Of a DNA stretch of 46,498 nucleotides, positions 37,028-45,966 are shown one piece after another. Under the pieces are notes generated by a model. It searched no databases and was not told where the DNA came from. It saw nothing but the letters and a program-made list of their open reading frames with translations. A program made the position numbers and the translations under genes. This DNA is from a virus: positions 1 through 46,498 of the IMG/VR virus record IMGVR_UViG_3300010397_000057; one strand, written 5' to 3'. Each line of letters opens with the position of its first letter. The first letter of the stretch is position 1.

Positions 37028-37489
37028 CTAGTTGCCGTACTTCGCGCGGAGGTCGCTCTGGGACAGACCGCCCTCTTCGACGGCCTTCGTCTCGTCCTCC
37101 GAGGCGCCCTGCGACGCGGCGTAGGCCGCCCAGTCGGCGCGGGACGCGTTGCCGCGCGGCTTCCCGCCCGCCTGCGCGGCGTCGACAGCGGCCTGGGCCC
37201 GGTCGACGCGTTCGGCGATCGTCGCCGCCGCGGCCGGCTGCTCGGTCACCGGCACGTTCGGCGGCTCACCCGGGACCGGGGTCCCGGCCGGCACGGCGAC
37301 GTGCTCGCCGGCGAAGCTGTCGGCCTCGACGAGGTAGCCCTTGCGGACCAGCCGCTCGACGTCCTCGGGGTTGGCGTTCGGCGGGACGGGCGCACCGGCG
37401 TAGTAGCCGAGCAGCACGTCACCGCCGGAGACGGGGTCTGCGACGCGGAACGTGACGTACGCGGCGAGGACCTTGTATTCCGTCGTCAC
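37028..37489 (-). CDS. Hypothetical virion-region protein, 153 aa
   Basis: VTTEYKVLAAYVTFRVADPV starts at GTG 37489, overlapping the capsid stop (GTGA). The first 60 residues look like a small beta barrel with LGYYAGAPVPPNANPEDVER. A Pro/Val linker and a coiled segment (AERVDRAQAAVDAAQAGGKP) follow. The end, SRADWAAYAASQGASEDETK and LSQSDLRAKYGN, resembles the small helical domain ('..dWv.yA...G.....a....k.dLi..yG') found in many phage head proteins after the capsid gene. Confidence 0.68.
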   Translation of the reverse strand: MTTEYKVLAAYVTFRVADPVSGGDVLLGYYAGAPVPPNANPEDVERLVRKGYLVEADSFAGEHVAVPAGTPVPGEPPNVPVTEQPAAAATIAERVDRAQAAVDAAQAGGKPRGNASRADWAAYAASQGASEDETKAVEEGGLSQSDLRAKYGN

Positions 37490-38409
37490 GACGTCACCCC
37501 CGTGATCTCCTGGCCCGCGCCGGTCTCCTGCACGACGGGGACCGTCTTGCGGCGGCCCTGGAGATCCCAGGCGTCGATGTCGTCCTTGCGGATGCTCTTG
37601 ACCTGCACGGCGAGGTCGGCGATCGAATAACCGGGCGCGCCGTCCATCTCGTCGGCCATGCCGCCCAGGGCCTTCGAGTCCAGGACGAAGCACGACGTGG
37701 CCACCGGCAGGTTCGGCGTGACGATCACCTTCAGGCCTGCGACCTGCTCGACCTCGCCGGTGTAGACCGGGTTGTCGGTCGTCTCCCGGCGCCACAGGTT
37801 CGAGATGACCGTGTCGACCATCATCGACATGTAGCCGAGGTCCGACACGACGAGCGTGTCCGGGTCGTAGCCGAGGTTGCGGGCGCGGATGATCCGCTTG
37901 GCGTTGAGAATGTCGTTGAGGATCTTCGGCGAGCCCGCGTCCCACTTGCCGAGCGTCGCCGTGTCGGCGAGCGCCGAGCCGATCGCCGACATGGTGATCG
38001 AGTCGACCTGCGAGATGATCGAGTTGATCACCTTCTGCATGGCCCGGTCGACGGCCGCCTGGCCGTACACGTTGCGGGCGATCTCCTCGTCGGTGATCCG
38101 GACCTTCTGGCCCCACTTCGCGACCGCCGCGAGGGCGGCGGTGCCGGTCGGCATGTTCGCGAACGGGTACTCAGACCCGGCCGAAACCGACTCGACGGTG
38201 CGGTCGGTGACGAAGGGCTCGGTCTGCTCGTACAGCACGGCACCGCCGCTGGAGCGGAACCGCTGCGTGAGCAGCTGGTCGGAGACGAACCGCAGGTCCT
38301 TGAAGTCGCGCAGGCGTCGCTTGATCGACTCCGGCGAGTTGAGGAACCGGCTGATGGCCAGGGAATCTCCCGTGAGGACGGGAGCCCCGGCCGGGTAGGT
38401 GCCAGGCAT
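37486..38409 (-). CDS. Major capsid protein
   Basis: 307 residues. DSLAISRFLNSPESIKRRLR, FVSDQLLTQRFRSSGGAVLY, EPFVTDRTVESVSAGSEYPF, then AKWGQKVRITDEEIARN, LVVSDLGYMSMMVDTVISNL and VEQVAGLKVIVTPNLPVATS. This order matches the HK97-fold capsid proteins of actinophages: N-arm, E-loop region with 'vaeg.EyPf', long spine helix, P and A domains. 'dwG....itdEe' is characteristic. A protease precedes it, as does the decoration gene. Confidence 0.88.
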   Translation of the reverse strand: MPGTYPAGAPVLTGDSLAISRFLNSPESIKRRLRDFKDLRFVSDQLLTQRFRSSGGAVLYEQTEPFVTDRTVESVSAGSEYPFANMPTGTAALAAVAKWGQKVRITDEEIARNVYGQAAVDRAMQKVINSIISQVDSITMSAIGSALADTATLGKWDAGSPKILNDILNAKRIIRARNLGYDPDTLVVSDLGYMSMMVDTVISNLWRRETTDNPVYTGEVEQVAGLKVIVTPNLPVATSCFVLDSKALGGMADEMDGAPGYSIADLAVQVKSIRKDDIDAWDLQGRRKTVPVVQETGAGQEITGVTS

Positions 38410-38820: not shown

Positions 38821-40440
38821 TCAGCCCACCTTCTGCTTGCCGTAGAGCGCCGCGTAGATCTCGTCGGCCTCGGTCTCGCCGTCGGCGTAGCCGGACTCCT
38901 CGACCGGGATGACGCCGGCCTTCAGGCTCGCGATGACCTCGCGGGTGCCCTCCGGGTCGGCGTTCCACAGCCGCACCCAGTGCGGCTTGCGGGTCGGCCC
39001 GAACTTGCCCGCCTTCACCGCCGCGGTGATGATCTGGTCCCGCTCGCCGTCGCGGTGCCGCTGCGCCTCCGCCTCGAGGCGCTTGAGGCGGTTCTGGCCC
39101 TCCTCGTACGCCGCCGCGTCGATGCGCAACATGCCGGGCGCGTCCTTGGCCGAGGCCGCGACGGGCTCCGGCGCGGCCGGGACGAGGTTCGCGGCGGCCA
39201 GAGCCGACCGCACCTCGTCGTCGGAGGCGGTTGGCGGAAGGCCGCATGCCTCTCGGATCTTTGCCGGATCCATGCCGGCTCCTTCCTGCTGCTTGGGTTT
39301 CTCCGCCTCCGGGGCGGGAGCTGAGGCCGCGATGAACGCGGCGGGTGCGCCTGGGGCGCGGGCGACGATCCGGGCCGACGCGGCGATGCCGAGGGCCTGT
39401 GGGAGGTCGCGGAGGGATCGGAGCGAGGAGATGCCGGGCGGTGTGACGCCGAGCAGGGCCAGGCCGTCGATGACGAAGCTGTACTTCTCGCCGTCTGCTT
39501 CGAAGTCGGTCCAGCCCTCCACGGACCGGTCCGGCCAGGCGGTCGGGGCGGCCGCGGCGAGCCAGTCGGGCATGCCGGTCACGTCGCCGATGAGGACTGG
39601 GACGTCGCCGTCGTCGACGACGCGGAGGTTCCCGAGCCAGCCCAGGGCGGGCTCGCCGTCGCCGGCGAACCGCGGGTCGGCGTGGCCGAGCTTGATCGGC
39701 GCGCGGTAGCCCGGCCGGCCGGCGTGGCGGGCCGCGTCGCGGATCATCTCGGGCGTGAACGTCTGCTCACCGCTGGCCAGTTGCCATGTGCCGGGCCGGA
39801 CCAGTTCGATCCCGAGGAGCTCCCCGGCTTCGACCCGGCCGGACGCCTTGACCTTCGGCTTCCGTTTCGGCGTCGGCAGTGTCTTCAGCCGGGCGATGAA
39901 CGCCGGGTCGACGATGCCGGTCGGGTTCATGCCGAGCTTCGTCTGCGCGGCCTTCACCGCGGCGGTCGTCAACGGCCCGAACTCGCCGTCGGAGCGGAGC
40001 TTCTTCCCCGCCCCGTCGGTGAACCCGAGCCGGTTCAGCTCGCCCTGCAGCGACTTGACCCGCGGGTCCGGCTCGCCGTAGCCGGTGCCGGTGACGCCGT
40101 CGAAGCCGAGCTGCCCGTCCGGGATCTTCCGCCGGGGCTGTGCCGGTTTCTGGCCTGGCTTCTTCTGGGCGGGCTTCGACGGTTTCTTCGTGGACTTCGA
40201 CGAGTCGCCGCCGCTGGTGGTGGTGAACTGGCCGCCGGTGGAGCTGCCGGCCGGGGCGTGCGGGTGCGAGCCCGGCTCGTACGCCGCCTCGACCCGCTCC
40301 TCCTCGTCGTCCTCCGCCTCGGCTTCGTCGTCCTCGGCTTCCGCTTCCTCGAGGTCCTCGTCGTCGCCGGGTTCGGCGTCCTCCTCGTCGTCGAGTTCTT
40401 CTTCGTCGAGGTCTTCCGCCTGGTGCAGGGCATGCGTCAT
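38821..40440 (-). CDS. Capsid maturation protease/scaffold with peptidoglycan-binding domain
   Basis: 539 residues from ATG 40440 (GGAGG upstream; ATG 40458 is also open). Residues 8-50 are almost only Asp/Glu/Ala. HPHAPAGSSTGGQF (59-72) precedes a Lys/Pro-rich linker. Residues 125-185 (DPRVKSLQGELNRLGFTD, LTTAAVKAAQTKLG) form a PG_binding_1-type domain. Residues 205-345 (APIKLGHADPRFAGDGEPAL, DRSVEGWTDFE, LALLGVTPPG) match Mu gpI-type phage proteases. The C-terminal 145 residues are a helical scaffold-like part. The extra domains are unusual for this protein. Confidence 0.78.
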   Translation of the reverse strand: MTHALHQAEDLDEEELDDEEDAEPGDDEDLEEAEAEDDEAEAEDDEEERVEAAYEPGSHPHAPAGSSTGGQFTTTSGGDSSKSTKKPSKPAQKKPGQKPAQPRRKIPDGQLGFDGVTGTGYGEPDPRVKSLQGELNRLGFTDGAGKKLRSDGEFGPLTTAAVKAAQTKLGMNPTGIVDPAFIARLKTLPTPKRKPKVKASGRVEAGELLGIELVRPGTWQLASGEQTFTPEMIRDAARHAGRPGYRAPIKLGHADPRFAGDGEPALGWLGNLRVVDDGDVPVLIGDVTGMPDWLAAAAPTAWPDRSVEGWTDFEADGEKYSFVIDGLALLGVTPPGISSLRSLRDLPQALGIAASARIVARAPGAPAAFIAASAPAPEAEKPKQQEGAGMDPAKIREACGLPPTASDDEVRSALAAANLVPAAPEPVAASAKDAPGMLRIDAAAYEEGQNRLKRLEAEAQRHRDGERDQIITAAVKAGKFGPTRKPHWVRLWNADPEGTREVIASLKAGVIPVEESGYADGETEADEIYAALYGKQKVG

Positions 40441-40484
40441 CGCCCCCACCTCCTTCACAGGTGCGCGGGGTTGACGGGGGTTGG

Positions 40485-40664
40485 TCAGTCGATGGCCGCC
40501 CGGCTGCGGATCGCCGCGTAGGCGTCAGCGGCCGGGCCGGTCAGGTCGTCAGCGGTGTCAACGCCCGGCTGCTGGGCGCCCTCGATGAGTGCTTGCCGTT
40601 CGTCGAGGCTGGCTTTGCCGACCCGCATGAGCAGCGCGATGCGCTGCATCGCCTCGGGCGTCAT
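40485..40664 (-). CDS. Hypothetical protein, 59 aa
   Basis: MTPEAMQRIALLMRVGKASL followed by DERQALIEGAQQPGVDTADD and a helical end (AADAYAAIRSRAAID). Helical throughout. ATG 40664 overlaps the portal-fusion stop (ATGA), so it is coupled to it. By analogy it could chaperone or neutralise the C-terminal enzymatic domain of the fusion; nothing in its sequence proves this. Confidence 0.6.
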   Translation of the reverse strand: MTPEAMQRIALLMRVGKASLDERQALIEGAQQPGVDTADDLTGPAADAYAAIRSRAAID

Positions 40665-43600
40665 CCGGCCTCCATCGTGATCGCGCCCCGGTTGAGCACG
40701 ATGTACTGGCGGGCCTTGCTCTGCCGTTTCCGGCCGCCCTCGTGGATGGTGTAGCCGTCGTCCATGTTGTCGACCTGGATGACGTCGTAGCCGCGCATCG
40801 TCGCGTACCGGCCGTTGTCGTAGACCCAGTCCTCGACGTCCGGTGGGAGCCGGTCCCGGTTCGCTTTCAGCCACTGCTTCCGCTCGGCTTCGAGTTTCCG
40901 CATCGTGATCGTCTTCGCGCCTGGCCGCAGCGCAACCCGGACCGTGGCACCGTCGCCGAAGCTCTCGGCGTCCGGGTCGGCGGTGTCCGACCGGCTGCTG
41001 CGGCCGAACCGGTCCGCGACCCGCTTGTCGACGGAGAAGTAGATCCCGTTGCCGTAGTAGCCGTTGCCGTAGGCGAAGTCCGGGTCGTCGCGCATCGCCG
41101 CGATCTGCGCCTCCGCGGAAATCCCGGACTCGTGGGACCGGACACCACGGAACAGTTCGACCCCGCCGCCCTTGACGGCGTCGTCGACGGAGCCGACTTC
41201 GGGCAGGCCGTAGCCCTGGTCCCGGGTCAGCTGGGTGAGGATGCCGTCCCGGGGGTCGTCGAGGCCGTAGGCGACCTGGAGCCGTCCGTGCCGGGGGTCT
41301 CCGCCGTTGACGTCGCGGATGATGTCGTCGACGATGTCCCGGCCGGCGGCGAGCCGGCCGCGAGCCGACCGGCCGGGTTCCGCGACCGCTGGCGGAGCCG
41401 CCTTGCGCGGCGTCCGCTTCCGGGCCGTCGGAGCCGTGTTGAACCCGAGTTTGTCCCGGAGCAGTTCGGCCGTCTTGCGGTCGTCCGGCTCGGCGGTTTC
41501 GGCCATCGACCGCAGCTCGCGGCCGATCTCCTCCCGCTCGGCGGCGGTGAGCTGCCTGAGGTCGCTCTTCTCCAGGCCACTCAGGGCGGAGAGGACGTCG
41601 AAGTCCTCGTAGCCTTCCTTGCCCAGCACGTCGCGGACCTTGGCGAGCCGCTCCGCCCGGGCGGGCTTGGCGCTCGGCGTCCGCTTCCGGGGCGCCGCCG
41701 GAGCTGGTGCCGGGGTGGCCGCCTTGCCGCCGAGGTCGTCGATGAGCTTCTTGGCGATCGAGTCGCGGCTTTCGCCGCGGGTCAGTGTGATACCGGGCCG
41801 CTTCGAGGCCGCTCGGCGCAGTTGCTCCCGGTCGAAGTCCGCGAACGGGTCGCCCTTGCCGCCGCCGGCGCGGTGGGTCTCGATCGCCGACTTCAGCTTG
41901 TCCACTGTGGAGCGGAACTTCCCGCCAGCACCGCGCGGGTGCTTCTCGTCGAAGTCGGGACCTGCGGCCGCCCGGACCTCGCCGTGCAACTCTGCGAGCG
42001 CCAGGATCAGCGCCTCGATCAGCTCTTCCCGCTCGGCGGCCTCGTCGTCGACATCTGCGGAGGCGTGGACGTTGCGGTGGTCGCCGGGCCAGTAGCCCCA
42101 GCGCAGGTGGAACCAGGCCGCCGCGGTCCGCTTGGCCATGCCCTCGGCAAGGTACTTCCGCAGGTGGCCGAGCAACTCGGTGAAGGTCTTCCACTTCGCC
42201 GCGCCCTCGCCGTACACCCAGTAATGCTTGAGCTCCTCACCACCCGGGTGCGTGTCGACCCCGGCAGCCGCGGACACCGTCTCCGGCGGCTGCGGGCCCC
42301 GCAGCTCACCCTCGATCCGGGCCAGCTCCTTCAGCAGGCGCCGCGCGCCCTTCGGGTCGTACCTGACGCCGTCGCTGTCCGGGTTGGTCCGCACCTCGAG
42401 GTTCCACGACGCGGGGTCATCGTCGGTGAGGAAGATGCCCCAGGTCAGGTCTGCGGTGTCCCCGCCGCCGATCGCTTCACCACTCGCCACCGGCTCGGAA
42501 CCGAGGAGCTTCGGGTCGGTCGGCGCCTGGCCGGAGTTCCACGCCTTGTCCGCGTCACGCGCAGCCTGCTTCGCCTGCTCGACACCCGACTCCAGACGTG
42601 TCCGGAGCTTCGTGACGGTGTCGGTGTCGAGGATCGCCGTGTCGCTGCCGTCCTCCCAGTCGCCCTTCCAGTCGTTGGACTCGTCGGCCGGGGTGACGCC
42701 GAGCCGGACCTCCGGCCCGTACTCCTTGGAGAAGACCACCACCCAGTTCAGGTCGGCGAGCTCGTCCTCGTCCGAGAGGCGGTCGCTCGACCCGAGCCGG
42801 TCACCAGGGTCGAGGGGTACGACGTCGTCGATGCCGAGCCCGTCGGTGAAGTCCGGGAGGCCGGGCCCGGGGATGCCGTCGCCCCACTCGCCGTTCGGGT
42901 CCCGCTTCTGGGCAGGGTTGTACTTCGCGGTCACGCCGCGCCGCGGCCGCCGGCGAGCCGGCCGTGCCGCGGCCACGGACTCCGCGCCCATCGGCGTCGC
43001 CTCAGGCGGCGTCGGCGCGGTCTGCCCGGGCGGCGGGGTCGCCGTCGCCGGGTCCGCCGGCGGGAGACCGTACTGCTGCCGGGACGTCTCCTCGAGGACC
43101 TGGTCCGGGTGGATGATCCCGGCGTCGACGAGGGTCTTCAGCGCCTGCGCTGTCGCCGCCTGCTGGGAGCCGATCTCGTCGAAGACCAGCCTGGGTGCGG
43201 GTTCGTCCTCACCGAAGTTCAGGTCGACGAGGTCTTCGATGACGTGCTGCGTCGTGACGTCCGCGATCTGCATCGCGAGCGTCTGGAGGCTGTAGACGAA
43301 GAAGTCCGCGAAGGTGGAGCCGAGCGCCCACGAGCCGGTCTGCGTGCCGAGGTTCAGGAAGTGCGCGAGGGCGGCCCGGGCGATCTGCTCGTCGTGGTAG
43401 CGGATCGCCGGGTCAGCGTCGGGCAGGGTGCCCTCGACGCCGCGGAGGACGAGGTCGGCGCCGAACGGCACCGCGGAGCCCGCGGCCTCGCCGGCACGCC
43501 ACAGGGTGGCCATCGACTTCCCGGCCGCCATGTCCCCCGGGCTCGCGCCCTCCTGGGCCTTGTACAGCGGGATACCCATCCCGTTGCGTTCGATCGTCTG

Positions 43601-44350
43601 CGCCTGGACACGGAGCAGCCGGTCTTTGAGCAGCCAGTTCTTGTACGCGGGGCGGAGGATCGACTGGCCGAGCCAGTTCCCGCCCTCGCGGTTACGGACG
43701 TAGGCGACGAGCCGGTCGACGGGGATGCGCTGCGGGGAGCCGTTCTCCGACGTCCACCGCTGCTTGATCCACTCCAGGCCGCCGTCAGCAGCAACCTTGA
43801 TCTCGTCGATCGTCGACGGCATCCGCGGCGCCAGCTTCTTCAGGTGCGCCTCAGTGCCCGCGTCGTTCACGCTGTACACCTGCTCGAAGAACATGTGCCC
43901 GAACGGCAGCGACAGCAGCGCGAGCCGCAGGTGGTCCGGCCAGGAGAACTTCCCCTTCGTCCGGACCGGCGCCTTCCCCGGGCCCTTCCCGACGATCGGG
44001 AGACCCATGTCGGTGGCGACGAACTTGACCACGGTGGCGCGGGCGCCGTTGGGGTCGATGCGCCACGGCGTCCGCCGGATCGGCAACGACACCGCTTCGA
44101 GCAGCGAGGTTACCTGCGCGTCGGTGCGGCGCATCTGGTCGTAGACGGCGACCGACCGGGGCCACTGCAGTTCCGGGGTGGTCTCGCCCTCGTCGAACAG
44201 CCACCACTGGCTGAGGGTCGCCTGGGCGTAGCCGATCTCCCCGCGGGACGCCACCTGCGGCTTCGTCGCCGCAGCCTCGACCCGCTGCGGCATCCCGGGC
44301 AACTCGATCTGCATCTGCGTCGACACGGCCGCCCGCCCTTCGGTGCTCAC
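40661..44350 (-). CDS. Portal protein fused to a long extension ending in an ADP-ribosyltransferase-like domain
   Basis: 1229 residues, over twice a normal portal. Residues 40-430 are a DUF935/Mu gp29-type portal (YAQATLSQWWLFDEG, RRTDAQVTSLLEAVSLPIRR, QSILRPAYKNWLLKDRLLRV). KYNPAQKRDPNGEWGDG (475-491) opens the extension; 520-690 contains two related acidic modules (LADLNWVVVF, TADLTWGIF). DEKHPRGAGGKF lies at 801-812, helical segments at 830-1010. Residues 1030-1229 have VELFRGVRS (1064-1072), YGNGYYGNGIYFS (1094-1106) and RQYIVLNRGAI (1214-1224), the pattern of ADP-ribosyltransferase folds. It could be delivered with the DNA. Start GTG 44350; no strong ribosome site. Confidence 0.72.
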   Translation of the reverse strand: MSTEGRAAVSTQMQIELPGMPQRVEAAATKPQVASRGEIGYAQATLSQWWLFDEGETTPELQWPRSVAVYDQMRRTDAQVTSLLEAVSLPIRRTPWRIDPNGARATVVKFVATDMGLPIVGKGPGKAPVRTKGKFSWPDHLRLALLSLPFGHMFFEQVYSVNDAGTEAHLKKLAPRMPSTIDEIKVAADGGLEWIKQRWTSENGSPQRIPVDRLVAYVRNREGGNWLGQSILRPAYKNWLLKDRLLRVQAQTIERNGMGIPLYKAQEGASPGDMAAGKSMATLWRAGEAAGSAVPFGADLVLRGVEGTLPDADPAIRYHDEQIARAALAHFLNLGTQTGSWALGSTFADFFVYSLQTLAMQIADVTTQHVIEDLVDLNFGEDEPAPRLVFDEIGSQQAATAQALKTLVDAGIIHPDQVLEETSRQQYGLPPADPATATPPPGQTAPTPPEATPMGAESVAAARPARRRPRRGVTAKYNPAQKRDPNGEWGDGIPGPGLPDFTDGLGIDDVVPLDPGDRLGSSDRLSDEDELADLNWVVVFSKEYGPEVRLGVTPADESNDWKGDWEDGSDTAILDTDTVTKLRTRLESGVEQAKQAARDADKAWNSGQAPTDPKLLGSEPVASGEAIGGGDTADLTWGIFLTDDDPASWNLEVRTNPDSDGVRYDPKGARRLLKELARIEGELRGPQPPETVSAAAGVDTHPGGEELKHYWVYGEGAAKWKTFTELLGHLRKYLAEGMAKRTAAAWFHLRWGYWPGDHRNVHASADVDDEAAEREELIEALILALAELHGEVRAAAGPDFDEKHPRGAGGKFRSTVDKLKSAIETHRAGGGKGDPFADFDREQLRRAASKRPGITLTRGESRDSIAKKLIDDLGGKAATPAPAPAAPRKRTPSAKPARAERLAKVRDVLGKEGYEDFDVLSALSGLEKSDLRQLTAAEREEIGRELRSMAETAEPDDRKTAELLRDKLGFNTAPTARKRTPRKAAPPAVAEPGRSARGRLAAGRDIVDDIIRDVNGGDPRHGRLQVAYGLDDPRDGILTQLTRDQGYGLPEVGSVDDAVKGGGVELFRGVRSHESGISAEAQIAAMRDDPDFAYGNGYYGNGIYFSVDKRVADRFGRSSRSDTADPDAESFGDGATVRVALRPGAKTITMRKLEAERKQWLKANRDRLPPDVEDWVYDNGRYATMRGYDVIQVDNMDDGYTIHEGGRKRQSKARQYIVLNRGAITMEAG

Positions 44351-44361
44351 ACTGGAGGCGG

Positions 44362-45966
44362 TCAGAACCCGATCGTGAACAGGTCACCTTCGGAGCGTCC
44401 CGTTGATGGGACGTGGTCGACCATGGGCGGCGGGTCAGGCGGCCGGACCGGCTCGCCGGCCAGGAAGGCCGCCCGGTCCACGGCCATCACCGCGGCGACC
44501 GCGAGGTCGATGCGGCGCTGACTGTGCTTGTGCTCCTTGTAGATCCGGGTCCCGCGGGAGTCGGCCTTCAGCACCGCGTTGTCGAGGTGCCGGGCCAGGC
44601 GCAGGTCGCCGGAGTGCGTCAGGGTGCCGTTCATGACGGCCTCGTAGAACCGGGTCGTGGCTGGCGTCATGCGGGCCGGTGACTGCGGGAACTCGACCAC
44701 GGGGAGGCCCTCGGCCTCCAAGATTTGGTATGTCCGCGCCCAGCGGAACGGGTCGCAGGCGAGCTCGCGGACCTGCCAGCGGCGGCACGCGGCACGGATC
44801 GAGTCCTCGACGTCGGCGATCGGCACCCGCCAGTCGCCGCTGTCGTCGAGGGGTTTCTCCCACAGCTCGACCACGTCGACGTGCAGCGGGTTCGCCACCG
44901 ACACGACGACCAGTGCGGTGCAGTCGCCGTTGAACGACCCGTCGAAGCCGAGCACCACGTCGGTGCCGGGTTCGATCGGCTCGCCGCCCTCGCAGTCGTC
45001 CCAGGCGCCGGCCGGCAGCCACGCCGAGGACGTGTTCACCCACTGGTTGCAGCGTTTCGTCCGGAACTCGTTCTCCGGCGTCTTGACCACCGCGGAGGCG
45101 AGGTCCTCGACCGAGACGAGGTCGCCGATGCCGGGGTTCGCCTCGCGCCAGGTTGCCGGGTCGCGGTGGTCGGCGTCGGCCTTGCGCGGCTCCCACCAGG
45201 CCATGAAGAACGTCGGGTCGACGAGCTCGCCCCGGGCGATCCGCACACCCAGCTGGTACAGGCCGTAGCACAGCGACTCGGCGCCGCTCGCGTCGAACTT
45301 CACGCCGGCGGTGGTGATCCCGACCATGAGCGGCTCGACCCGGGCGCCCTGCGCGAGGGCCATGACGTCCCACAACTCGCGGTTCGGCTGGGCGTGGACC
45401 TCATCGAACAGCACCAGGTGCGGGTTGAGGCCCTCTTTGGTGAACGCTTCCGCGCTCAACGCTTTGTAGATGCTGCCGGTGTCCGGGTATTCGATGACGT
45501 CGCGGTAGACCTTGAGGATCGACGACAGTTCCGGGTCCATCTTGACCATCTGCCGGGCCGTGTTGAACACGACCTTGGCCTGGTCCTTGTCGGCCGCGCA
45601 GGAGTACACCTCGCCGCCCTGCGGACCCAGCACGAGACCGCCGAGGCCGAGCGTCGACCCGACACCGGACTTGCCGTTCTTCCGTGCCACGCCGAGCAGC
45701 GCCTGACGGTGCCGATACCGGCCGTCGGCGCGGCGGGCCAGGGTGTGCGAGACGAGATTGCGCTGCCACGGCCGGAACCGGATCAGCTGGCCGGCCGGGG
45801 CGGCGAGGGAGTCCTTGTCGACGCGGCAGACGGCCTCGCCGAAGTCGGTGAACAGCGGCCCGTCGCCGCGGGCGACGTCCTCGGCCGGGACCGGCGTGAG
45901 CCAGCGCGGCGGCCAGGAGTCATGCGTTGTGGCGGCGCTCGAGGAGCTTGTCGAGGGCGGAGACAC
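44362..45966 (-). CDS. terL: Terminase large subunit
   Basis: 534 residues. RFRPWQRNLVSHTLARRADG precedes the ATPase: Walker A GVARKNGKSG (92-101) and Walker B LVLFDEVH (184-191, D188/E189). The nuclease domain starts at VVLGFDGSFNGD (338-348, D342), with the last acidic motif near DLAVAAVMAVD. A phage lambdoid/HK97-type motor that cuts and pumps DNA into the head. GTG 45966 has GGAGG six bases upstream; it overlaps terS by 47 bases. Confidence 0.92.
   Translation of the reverse strand: MSPPSTSSSSAATTHDSWPPRWLTPVPAEDVARGDGPLFTDFGEAVCRVDKDSLAAPAGQLIRFRPWQRNLVSHTLARRADGRYRHRQALLGVARKNGKSGVGSTLGLGGLVLGPQGGEVYSCAADKDQAKVVFNTARQMVKMDPELSSILKVYRDVIEYPDTGSIYKALSAEAFTKEGLNPHLVLFDEVHAQPNRELWDVMALAQGARVEPLMVGITTAGVKFDASGAESLCYGLYQLGVRIARGELVDPTFFMAWWEPRKADADHRDPATWREANPGIGDLVSVEDLASAVVKTPENEFRTKRCNQWVNTSSAWLPAGAWDDCEGGEPIEPGTDVVLGFDGSFNGDCTALVVVSVANPLHVDVVELWEKPLDDSGDWRVPIADVEDSIRAACRRWQVRELACDPFRWARTYQILEAEGLPVVEFPQSPARMTPATTRFYEAVMNGTLTHSGDLRLARHLDNAVLKADSRGTRIYKEHKHSQRRIDLAVAAVMAVDRAAFLAGEPVRPPDPPPMVDHVPSTGRSEGDLFTIGF

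What the first reader, a model, noticed from the sequence alone, without database searches (positions are those of the whole stretch)
40661..44350. Portal fused to an ADP-ribosyltransferase-like effector
Seen: a 1229-residue frame with a DUF935-type portal (40-430), repeated acidic modules, and a last 200 residues with VELFRGVRS, GNGYYGNGIYFS and RQYIVLNRGAI. Known: T4 packages Alt, an ADP-ribosyltransferase that is injected and modifies host polymerase; MuF-type toxins are linked to head genes. Inferred: this portal carries its own effector, twelve copies per particle, either cleaved off by the adjacent protease or presented inside the head. The coupled 59-residue gene downstream could be a chaperone or immunity factor.
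Basis: partly seen in the sequence, partly recalled or inferred. Interest (0 to 1): 0.78.

Follow-up and report, generated by a model that had tools for sequence, protein, structure and literature searches.

The report
Phage portal carrying a swappable enzyme
This phage's DNA-entry gate protein carries at its tail a predicted ADP-ribosylating enzyme that is exchanged between phages together with a small partner gene, which fits a weapon packed in the virus head and probably delivered into the host: a known kind of strategy, with a new enzyme family and an apparently inseparable new partner.

Summary
The 1229-residue frame is real (40661-44350, minus strand): a Mu-type portal (68-428), about 570 residues of linker modules, then a C-terminal 229-residue domain. 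With 35 sequences AlphaFold2 models that domain well (pLDDT 87); Foldseek matches it to PARP catalytic domains, a cyanophage ejectosome protein and phage 'PolyVal ADP-ribosyltransferases'. The fold is an ADP-ribosyltransferase (ART), but its signature is R-Y-x, not R-STS-E: R1068 is invariant, Y1104 replaces STS, and the third site (Q1215) varies. No Pfam model matches it. Only a minority of related portals are extended, and they carry different effectors (this ART, ADPrib_exo_Tox, zeta toxin, NUDIX, kinase-like). The same ART also ends MuF, minor-capsid and other proteins. The 59-residue gene, overlapping by ATGA, belongs to a family present in 32 of 36 ART loci and 0 of 75 others; 26 of 26 loci found by that gene alone have the ART just upstream. 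Against its closest relative, only linker, ART and small gene are replaced. V-x-A motifs before modules suggest cutting by the head protease. ART-portal fusions are already described ('polyvalent' effectors); this ART family, its partner and the cassette exchange appear new. Delivery, activity and the partner's role are inferred.

The parts
40661..44350 (-). portal-effector fusion ORF, 1229 aa
43067..44149 (-). portal domain, residues 68-428 (PF06074; DUF935/Mu-type)
   Evidence: E 2.1e-58; closest named phages: Gordonia phages, 62% identity over residues 22-429
41351..43060 (-). linker modules, residues 431-1000, with YNPAQKRDPNGEWGDG and HPRGAGGKF motifs, PHROG 6439 module and V-x-A sites
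40664..41350 (-). ART-fold domain, residues 1001-1229; R1068, Y1104, Q1215
40485..40664 (-). partner gene, 59 aa, overlapping the fusion by ATGA
   Evidence: family hit 2.4e-11 with a model that includes it; reverse search 26 of 26 loci
40468..41715 (-). exchanged cassette (end of linker + ART + partner): no DNA similarity to L003 here, 82-83% identity on both sides
38821..40458 (-). head maturation protease / scaffold with PG_binding_1; candidate processing enzyme
   Evidence: V/I-x-A sites listed
44362..45966 (-). terminase large subunit (context)
37486..38409 (-). major capsid protein (context)

Best explanation
The gene encodes a portal protein whose C-terminus, which in known portals points into the head, has been extended into a polyvalent effector ending in an ART-fold enzyme. 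The portal ring would carry up to twelve copies into the procapsid. The neighbouring assemblin-type maturation protease probably cuts at V-x-A sites between modules and frees the enzyme inside the head, from where it enters the host with the DNA and most likely mono-ADP-ribosylates (or otherwise consumes NAD+ against) a host target early in infection. The overlapping 59-aa gene is its dedicated partner, most likely an inhibitor that keeps the enzyme quiet in the producing cell, less likely a folding or loading chaperone. ART and partner move as one cassette between phages and between carrier head proteins. Shown: the fusion, the fold by prediction, the linkage, the cassette exchange, the carrier switching. 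Inferred: packaging, cleavage, injection, catalysis, target, the partner's role.
For: Fold: pLDDT 87.2, pTM 0.86; Foldseek PDB hits are a cyanophage ejectosome protein and then almost only PARPs, prob up to 0.97; viral hits E 8.6e-14 downwards, including several annotated ART-PolyVal / PolyVal ADP-ribosyltransferase; profile versus PDB sequences also ranks tankyrases first, weakly, E 0.015-0.017. Related portals carry other effectors: ADPrib_exo_Tox in L044 and L015, Zeta_toxin in L050, PI3/4 kinase in L006, NUDIX in L004. The ART is also found C-terminal to MuF (L107) and Phage_min_cap2 (L110). Nearly the same ART (185 of 220) and partner (48 of 58) sit on a DUF935-type portal in L032 and on a PG_binding protein next to a different portal in L096. 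Partner linkage. Exchange as a unit. V-x-A[AS] 58 seen versus 23.5 expected in extensions, depleted in portal cores; 24 of 28 module starts have V-x-A within 12 residues upstream versus 11.5% at random.
Against: Foldseek E-values against PDB are only 3e-3 and TM-scores about 0.33, so the ART match is remote. The catalytic Glu position is variable (E 9, Q 2, N 3, A 15 of 35), so some members may be inactive or work differently. The module starts are partly homologous to one another, so their V-x-A sites are not independent; AA.V is also enriched in extensions (z 4.7), and there is no clear V-x-A site directly before the ART in the window (nearest strict one at residue 792, RLAAGRD at the boundary). 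No virion proteomics. The window's own partner is the most diverged of its family.
Confidence: 0.68

Rival explanations
1. The ART acts on NAD+ itself (NADase or NAD+ phosphorylase, as in RES-type toxins) rather than modifying a protein; delivery is the same.
For: The triad R-Y-x with N at the third site in some members resembles the R-Y-N described for the RES family (PMC9503650); a dedicated partner gene is also what toxin-antitoxin ARTs have.
Against: Structure hits shown are PARPs and ART-PolyVal proteins, not RES toxins; NUDIX domains next to the ART in giants suit ADP-ribose metabolism but do not decide between the two.
Confidence: 0.25
2. The partner is a chaperone or loading adaptor, not an inhibitor: it holds the ART and brings it into the head.
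For: In L105 and L106 the ART is not fused to the portal and the partner domain is instead the N-terminus of a larger protein with a CxxC...HPNCHC tail like that of MuF proteins (by eye); partner domains are also N-terminal parts of larger proteins in L084, L096 and L100.
Against: Most partners are free 54-79 aa proteins while the ART is already tethered to the head protein, so a loader is not needed there; no Pfam match for the MuF-like tail.
Confidence: 0.35
3. The extension is structural (head filling, DNA or scaffold binding) and the ART fold is a degenerate, inactive relic.
For: Third catalytic position variable; linker modules are shared with non-effector extensions.
Against: R, G and Y positions are invariant or nearly so in 19 non-redundant copies; the extension is missing from most relatives; the partner gene is retained with every cassette; unrelated toxin domains occupy the same place.
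Confidence: 0.12
4. Assembly or frame artefact joining two genes.
For: Metagenomic contig.
Against: At least seven independent contigs have the same DUF935-portal + ART fusion in one frame, and ART fusions end within 2-5 residues of the domain in all of these but L045.
Confidence: 0.01

Closest known systems
Phage polyvalent proteins (Iyer et al. 2017, PMC5512222) and head/portal-fused ARTs and NUDIX domains (PMC9503650)
   Same: Multidomain virion-linked effectors with disparate enzymes; fusions of effector domains to portal or MuF are explicitly described, ARTs included; injection is inferred there too.
   Different: Their polyvalent ARTs are described as H-Y-D and the Alt clade as R-S-E; this family is R-Y-x, is missed by Pfam ART-PolyVal except one member weakly (E 0.049), and has an apparently obligate small partner gene that I did not find described in the passages read.
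MuF polymorphic toxins of temperate phages (PMC5576092)
   Same: Head-associated N-terminal carrier, exchangeable C-terminal toxin, ART among the toxins.
   Different: Carrier is the portal itself; the same ART occurs on MuF in L107.
T4 Alt
   Same: Head-packaged ART.
   Different: Alt is a separate internal protein of the R-S-E clade; this one is fused to the portal with a PARP-like tyrosine.
PARP / tankyrase catalytic domains
   Same: Predicted fold and the GxFGxGIYFA motif.
   Different: R instead of H at the first site, Q or others at the Glu site, about 12% identity.

Membership tests
ADP-ribosyltransferase superfamily | ART fold | tested here: met
   Predicted only; remote similarity to solved structures.
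ADP-ribosyltransferase superfamily | NAD+-dependent transferase activity | not testable with these tools
   Needs protein.
R-S-E ARTs (Alt, MuF-type exoenzymes) | R, STS and ExE motifs | tested here: not met
   R1068 invariant, but no STS (GNGIYFS with Y1104) and no ExE. No PF03496 hit for this domain.
H-Y-[EDQ] ARTs (PARP, ART-PolyVal) | H, Y, E/D/Q at three positions | tested here: not met
   First position is R in 35 of 35; Y in 33 of 35; third E or Q in 11 of 35.
ART-PolyVal PF18760 | Match above the gathering score | tested here: not met
   Best E 0.049, 14.8 bits versus 31.2, in L032 only; window none.
Polyvalent proteins of phages | Several domains of unlike biochemical activity in one virion-linked polypeptide | tested here: met
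   Portal + linker modules + ART in the window; portal + NUDIX + ART in L004, ART pairs and SAP in L032 and L045. The window itself has only one enzymatic domain recognised.
Polyvalent proteins of phages | Packaged and injected | not testable with these tools
   Inferred from fusion to head proteins.
Polymorphic toxins | Conserved carrier, variable C-terminal effector, cognate downstream gene | tested here: met
   That the cognate gene gives immunity is not tested.
DUF935 / Mu-type portal | PF06074 match over the full model | tested here: met
   2-335 of 336, E 2.1e-58.

The most novel reading that the evidence does not exclude
The portal of this phage lineage is a polymorphic-effector platform: exchangeable C-terminal enzymes, each freed in the procapsid by the head protease at a V-x-A code, with the R-Y-x ART always paired with its own inhibitor, so that phages trade ART-inhibitor cassettes the way bacteria trade toxin-immunity pairs.
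Probability: 0.4. Interest if true: 0.78.

Novelty: new variant of a known kind. Interest (0 to 1): 0.6.

Why it matters
It names a previously unmodelled ART family of virions and a small partner family that travels with it. If the partner is an inhibitor, it gives a direct handle on how phages make toxic virion enzymes without harming their own production, and a ready-made test of whether portal-borne effectors are cleaved and injected. The V-x-A sites make the processing step testable by virion mass spectrometry.

Tried and rejected
Direct sequence searches with the window domain alone found nothing (phage records, viral contigs, genomes, Pfam, PDB). Single-sequence AlphaFold2 failed (pLDDT 34); the alignment of 35 solved this. 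A nine-sequence alignment was too divergent for collection scans; a three-sequence subset worked. First Pfam scan of extensions used wrong frames, redone. Assembly artefact rejected by independent contigs. R-S-E (Alt-like) assignment rejected on motifs. The partner model does not extend to the genes after the diverged ARTs of L107, L109, L110 (scores near zero). Lysogeny could not be judged: the ten other window ORFs scanned gave no integrase or repressor, but these were chosen by length, not a full annotation.

Full report
The frame is as described. ORF 40661-44350 on the minus strand is 1229 residues without interruption. Its portal domain is certified by Pfam (PF06074, residues 68-428, E 2.1e-58) and PHROGs, and it sits between the large terminase and the head maturation protease and capsid genes. 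The nearest named phages, Gordonia phages such as Dorito, share 62% identity with residues 22-429 but have a 445-codon portal without the extension.

The C-terminal 229 residues alone match nothing by sequence. A search with the portal domain brought 308 relatives, of which the best 80 were kept. Most stop within 110 residues of the portal; about twenty have extensions of 240-1708 residues. Several of these end in the same domain as the window: L003, L004, L019, L023, L032 (twice) and L045 (twice). A search with that domain gave 30 viral loci and one Clostridiales MAG locus, making an alignment of 35 sequences.

With this alignment AlphaFold2 gave pLDDT 87.2 and pTM 0.86, against 34 without it. 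Foldseek against solved structures lists a cyanophage A4 pre-ejectosome chain and then nearly only PARP1, PARP2, tankyrase and other PARP catalytic domains, at probability up to 0.97 but E-values of 3e-3 and above and TM-scores near 0.33. Against viral predicted structures there are 35 hits below 1e-3, the best 8.6e-14 to uncharacterised Caudovirales proteins, then several named ART-PolyVal-like or PolyVal ADP-ribosyltransferase and a capsid protease/MuF fusion of Microbacterium phage Schubert. The profile against PDB sequences ranks tankyrases first at the GxFGxGIYFA motif, weakly. Together these support an ART fold.

Active site: R1068 and G1069 are invariant in 35 of 35; Y1104, in the place of the PARP tyrosine, is in 33 of 35; Q1215, in the place of the PARP glutamate (QYIVLN against NEYIVYD, from memory of PARP1), is E in 9, Q in 2, N in 3, A in 15. 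So the family is neither R-S-E nor H-Y-E by its letters. R-Y-N is reported for the RES family (PMC9503650). Variation at the glutamate is known in mono-ART PARPs (own knowledge), so I favour mono-ADP-ribosylation, with NAD+ breakdown as a rival.

The same portal family carries other effectors in the same place: ADPrib_exo_Tox above its cut-off in L044 and L015, Zeta_toxin in L050, PI3/4 kinase in L006, NUDIX before the ART in L004. The ART domain in turn ends unrelated carriers: MuF (L107), Phage_min_cap2 (L110), NUDIX giants (L085, L091), a LigT/2H-type protein (L084), a PG_binding protein (L096). In L105, L106 and L109 it lies in a gene separate from the portal. L032 and L096 share the ART at 185 of 220 residues and the partner at 48 of 58, on different carriers.

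In the window it is 59 aa and starts inside the stop of the fusion (ATGA). In nearly all ART loci a protein of this family, with a consensus near M-x-P-x-x-x-RRLG-x-x-x-G-x-x-x-V-x-P-x-ER-x-x-I-x-x-A, starts at the same point. A model built from these hits 32 of 36 ART loci and none of 75 loci without the ART; the loci had been fetched by ART or portal, and the model was trained on the same genes, so I also searched the other way. Two scans with partner alignments gave 26 loci (some are contigs already known), and in all 26 the ART ends within about 20 bases upstream, including 7 contigs that the ART search had missed. ART and partner distances correlate (Mantel r 0.88, p 0.0002), which co-inheritance alone could give.

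Window and L003 differ in an instructive way. Their DNA is 82% identical from the end of the terminase to about residue 885 and 83% identical from 40468 through the protease, with nothing in between that passes as homologous DNA; the portals are 91% identical in protein, the ARTs 32%, the partners 20%. L019 and L023 show the same (portal 94%, ART 48%, partner 46%). So the cassette of linker end, ART and partner is replaced as a unit.

Processing: V-x-A[AS] is seen 58 times in extensions against 23.5 expected, and is depleted in portal cores; 24 of 28 module starts have V-x-A within 12 residues upstream against 11.5% for random positions. Sites also lie in the protease protein and before the portal domain (RVEAAATKP, residue 24). 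This resembles the V/L/I-x-A|S sites of herpesvirus assemblin, the fold to which phage head proteases belong (own knowledge). Caveats: the modules are related to each other, alanine-rich linkers inflate such counts (AA.V z 4.7), and no strict site lies right before the ART.

Prior art: polyvalent proteins with portal fusions of 2H, PBECR and InPase domains (PMC5512222), ARTs fused to head or portal proteins and NUDIX fused to portal (PMC9503650), MuF toxins (PMC5576092). The concept is therefore known. I found no description of this ART family, the partner family or cassette exchange on portals in the passages read and searches made, which is not proof of absence.

Noticed in passing
L105:409-2667: A PF04860 portal carries a topoisomerase IB catalytic core at its C-terminus (PF01028, E 6e-15), next to a separate ART gene.
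   Followed up: no
L096:2312-4777: A portal interrupted by an apparent intein (LAGLIDADG_3 and Hint-like matches), next to the ART gene.
   Followed up: no
window 42889-42933 and 41905-41949, and portal extensions of many loci; L109:4367-9160: A recurring short motif, YNPxxxRDPxGxW or HPRGxGGKF, in extensions (31 seen, 9 expected) but not in portal cores; in L109 several successive small head-region genes start with a version of it (YNPNHxxxGRF). Possibly a head-targeting tag.
   Followed up: partly
L045:5727-6140 and L113:3001-3162: The partner gene lies in another frame inside an ART ORF that does not stop but runs on; nested gene, frameshift or sequencing error.
   Followed up: no
L107:9501-10538; L109:6283-7095: Next to the diverged ARTs lie a zeta toxin and an ADPrib_exo_Tox gene, so effectors cluster in this head region.
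   Followed up: no
window 38821-40458: The maturation protease carries a PG_binding_1 domain (PF01471, E 4.6e-16) and a very acidic N-terminus.
   Followed up: no
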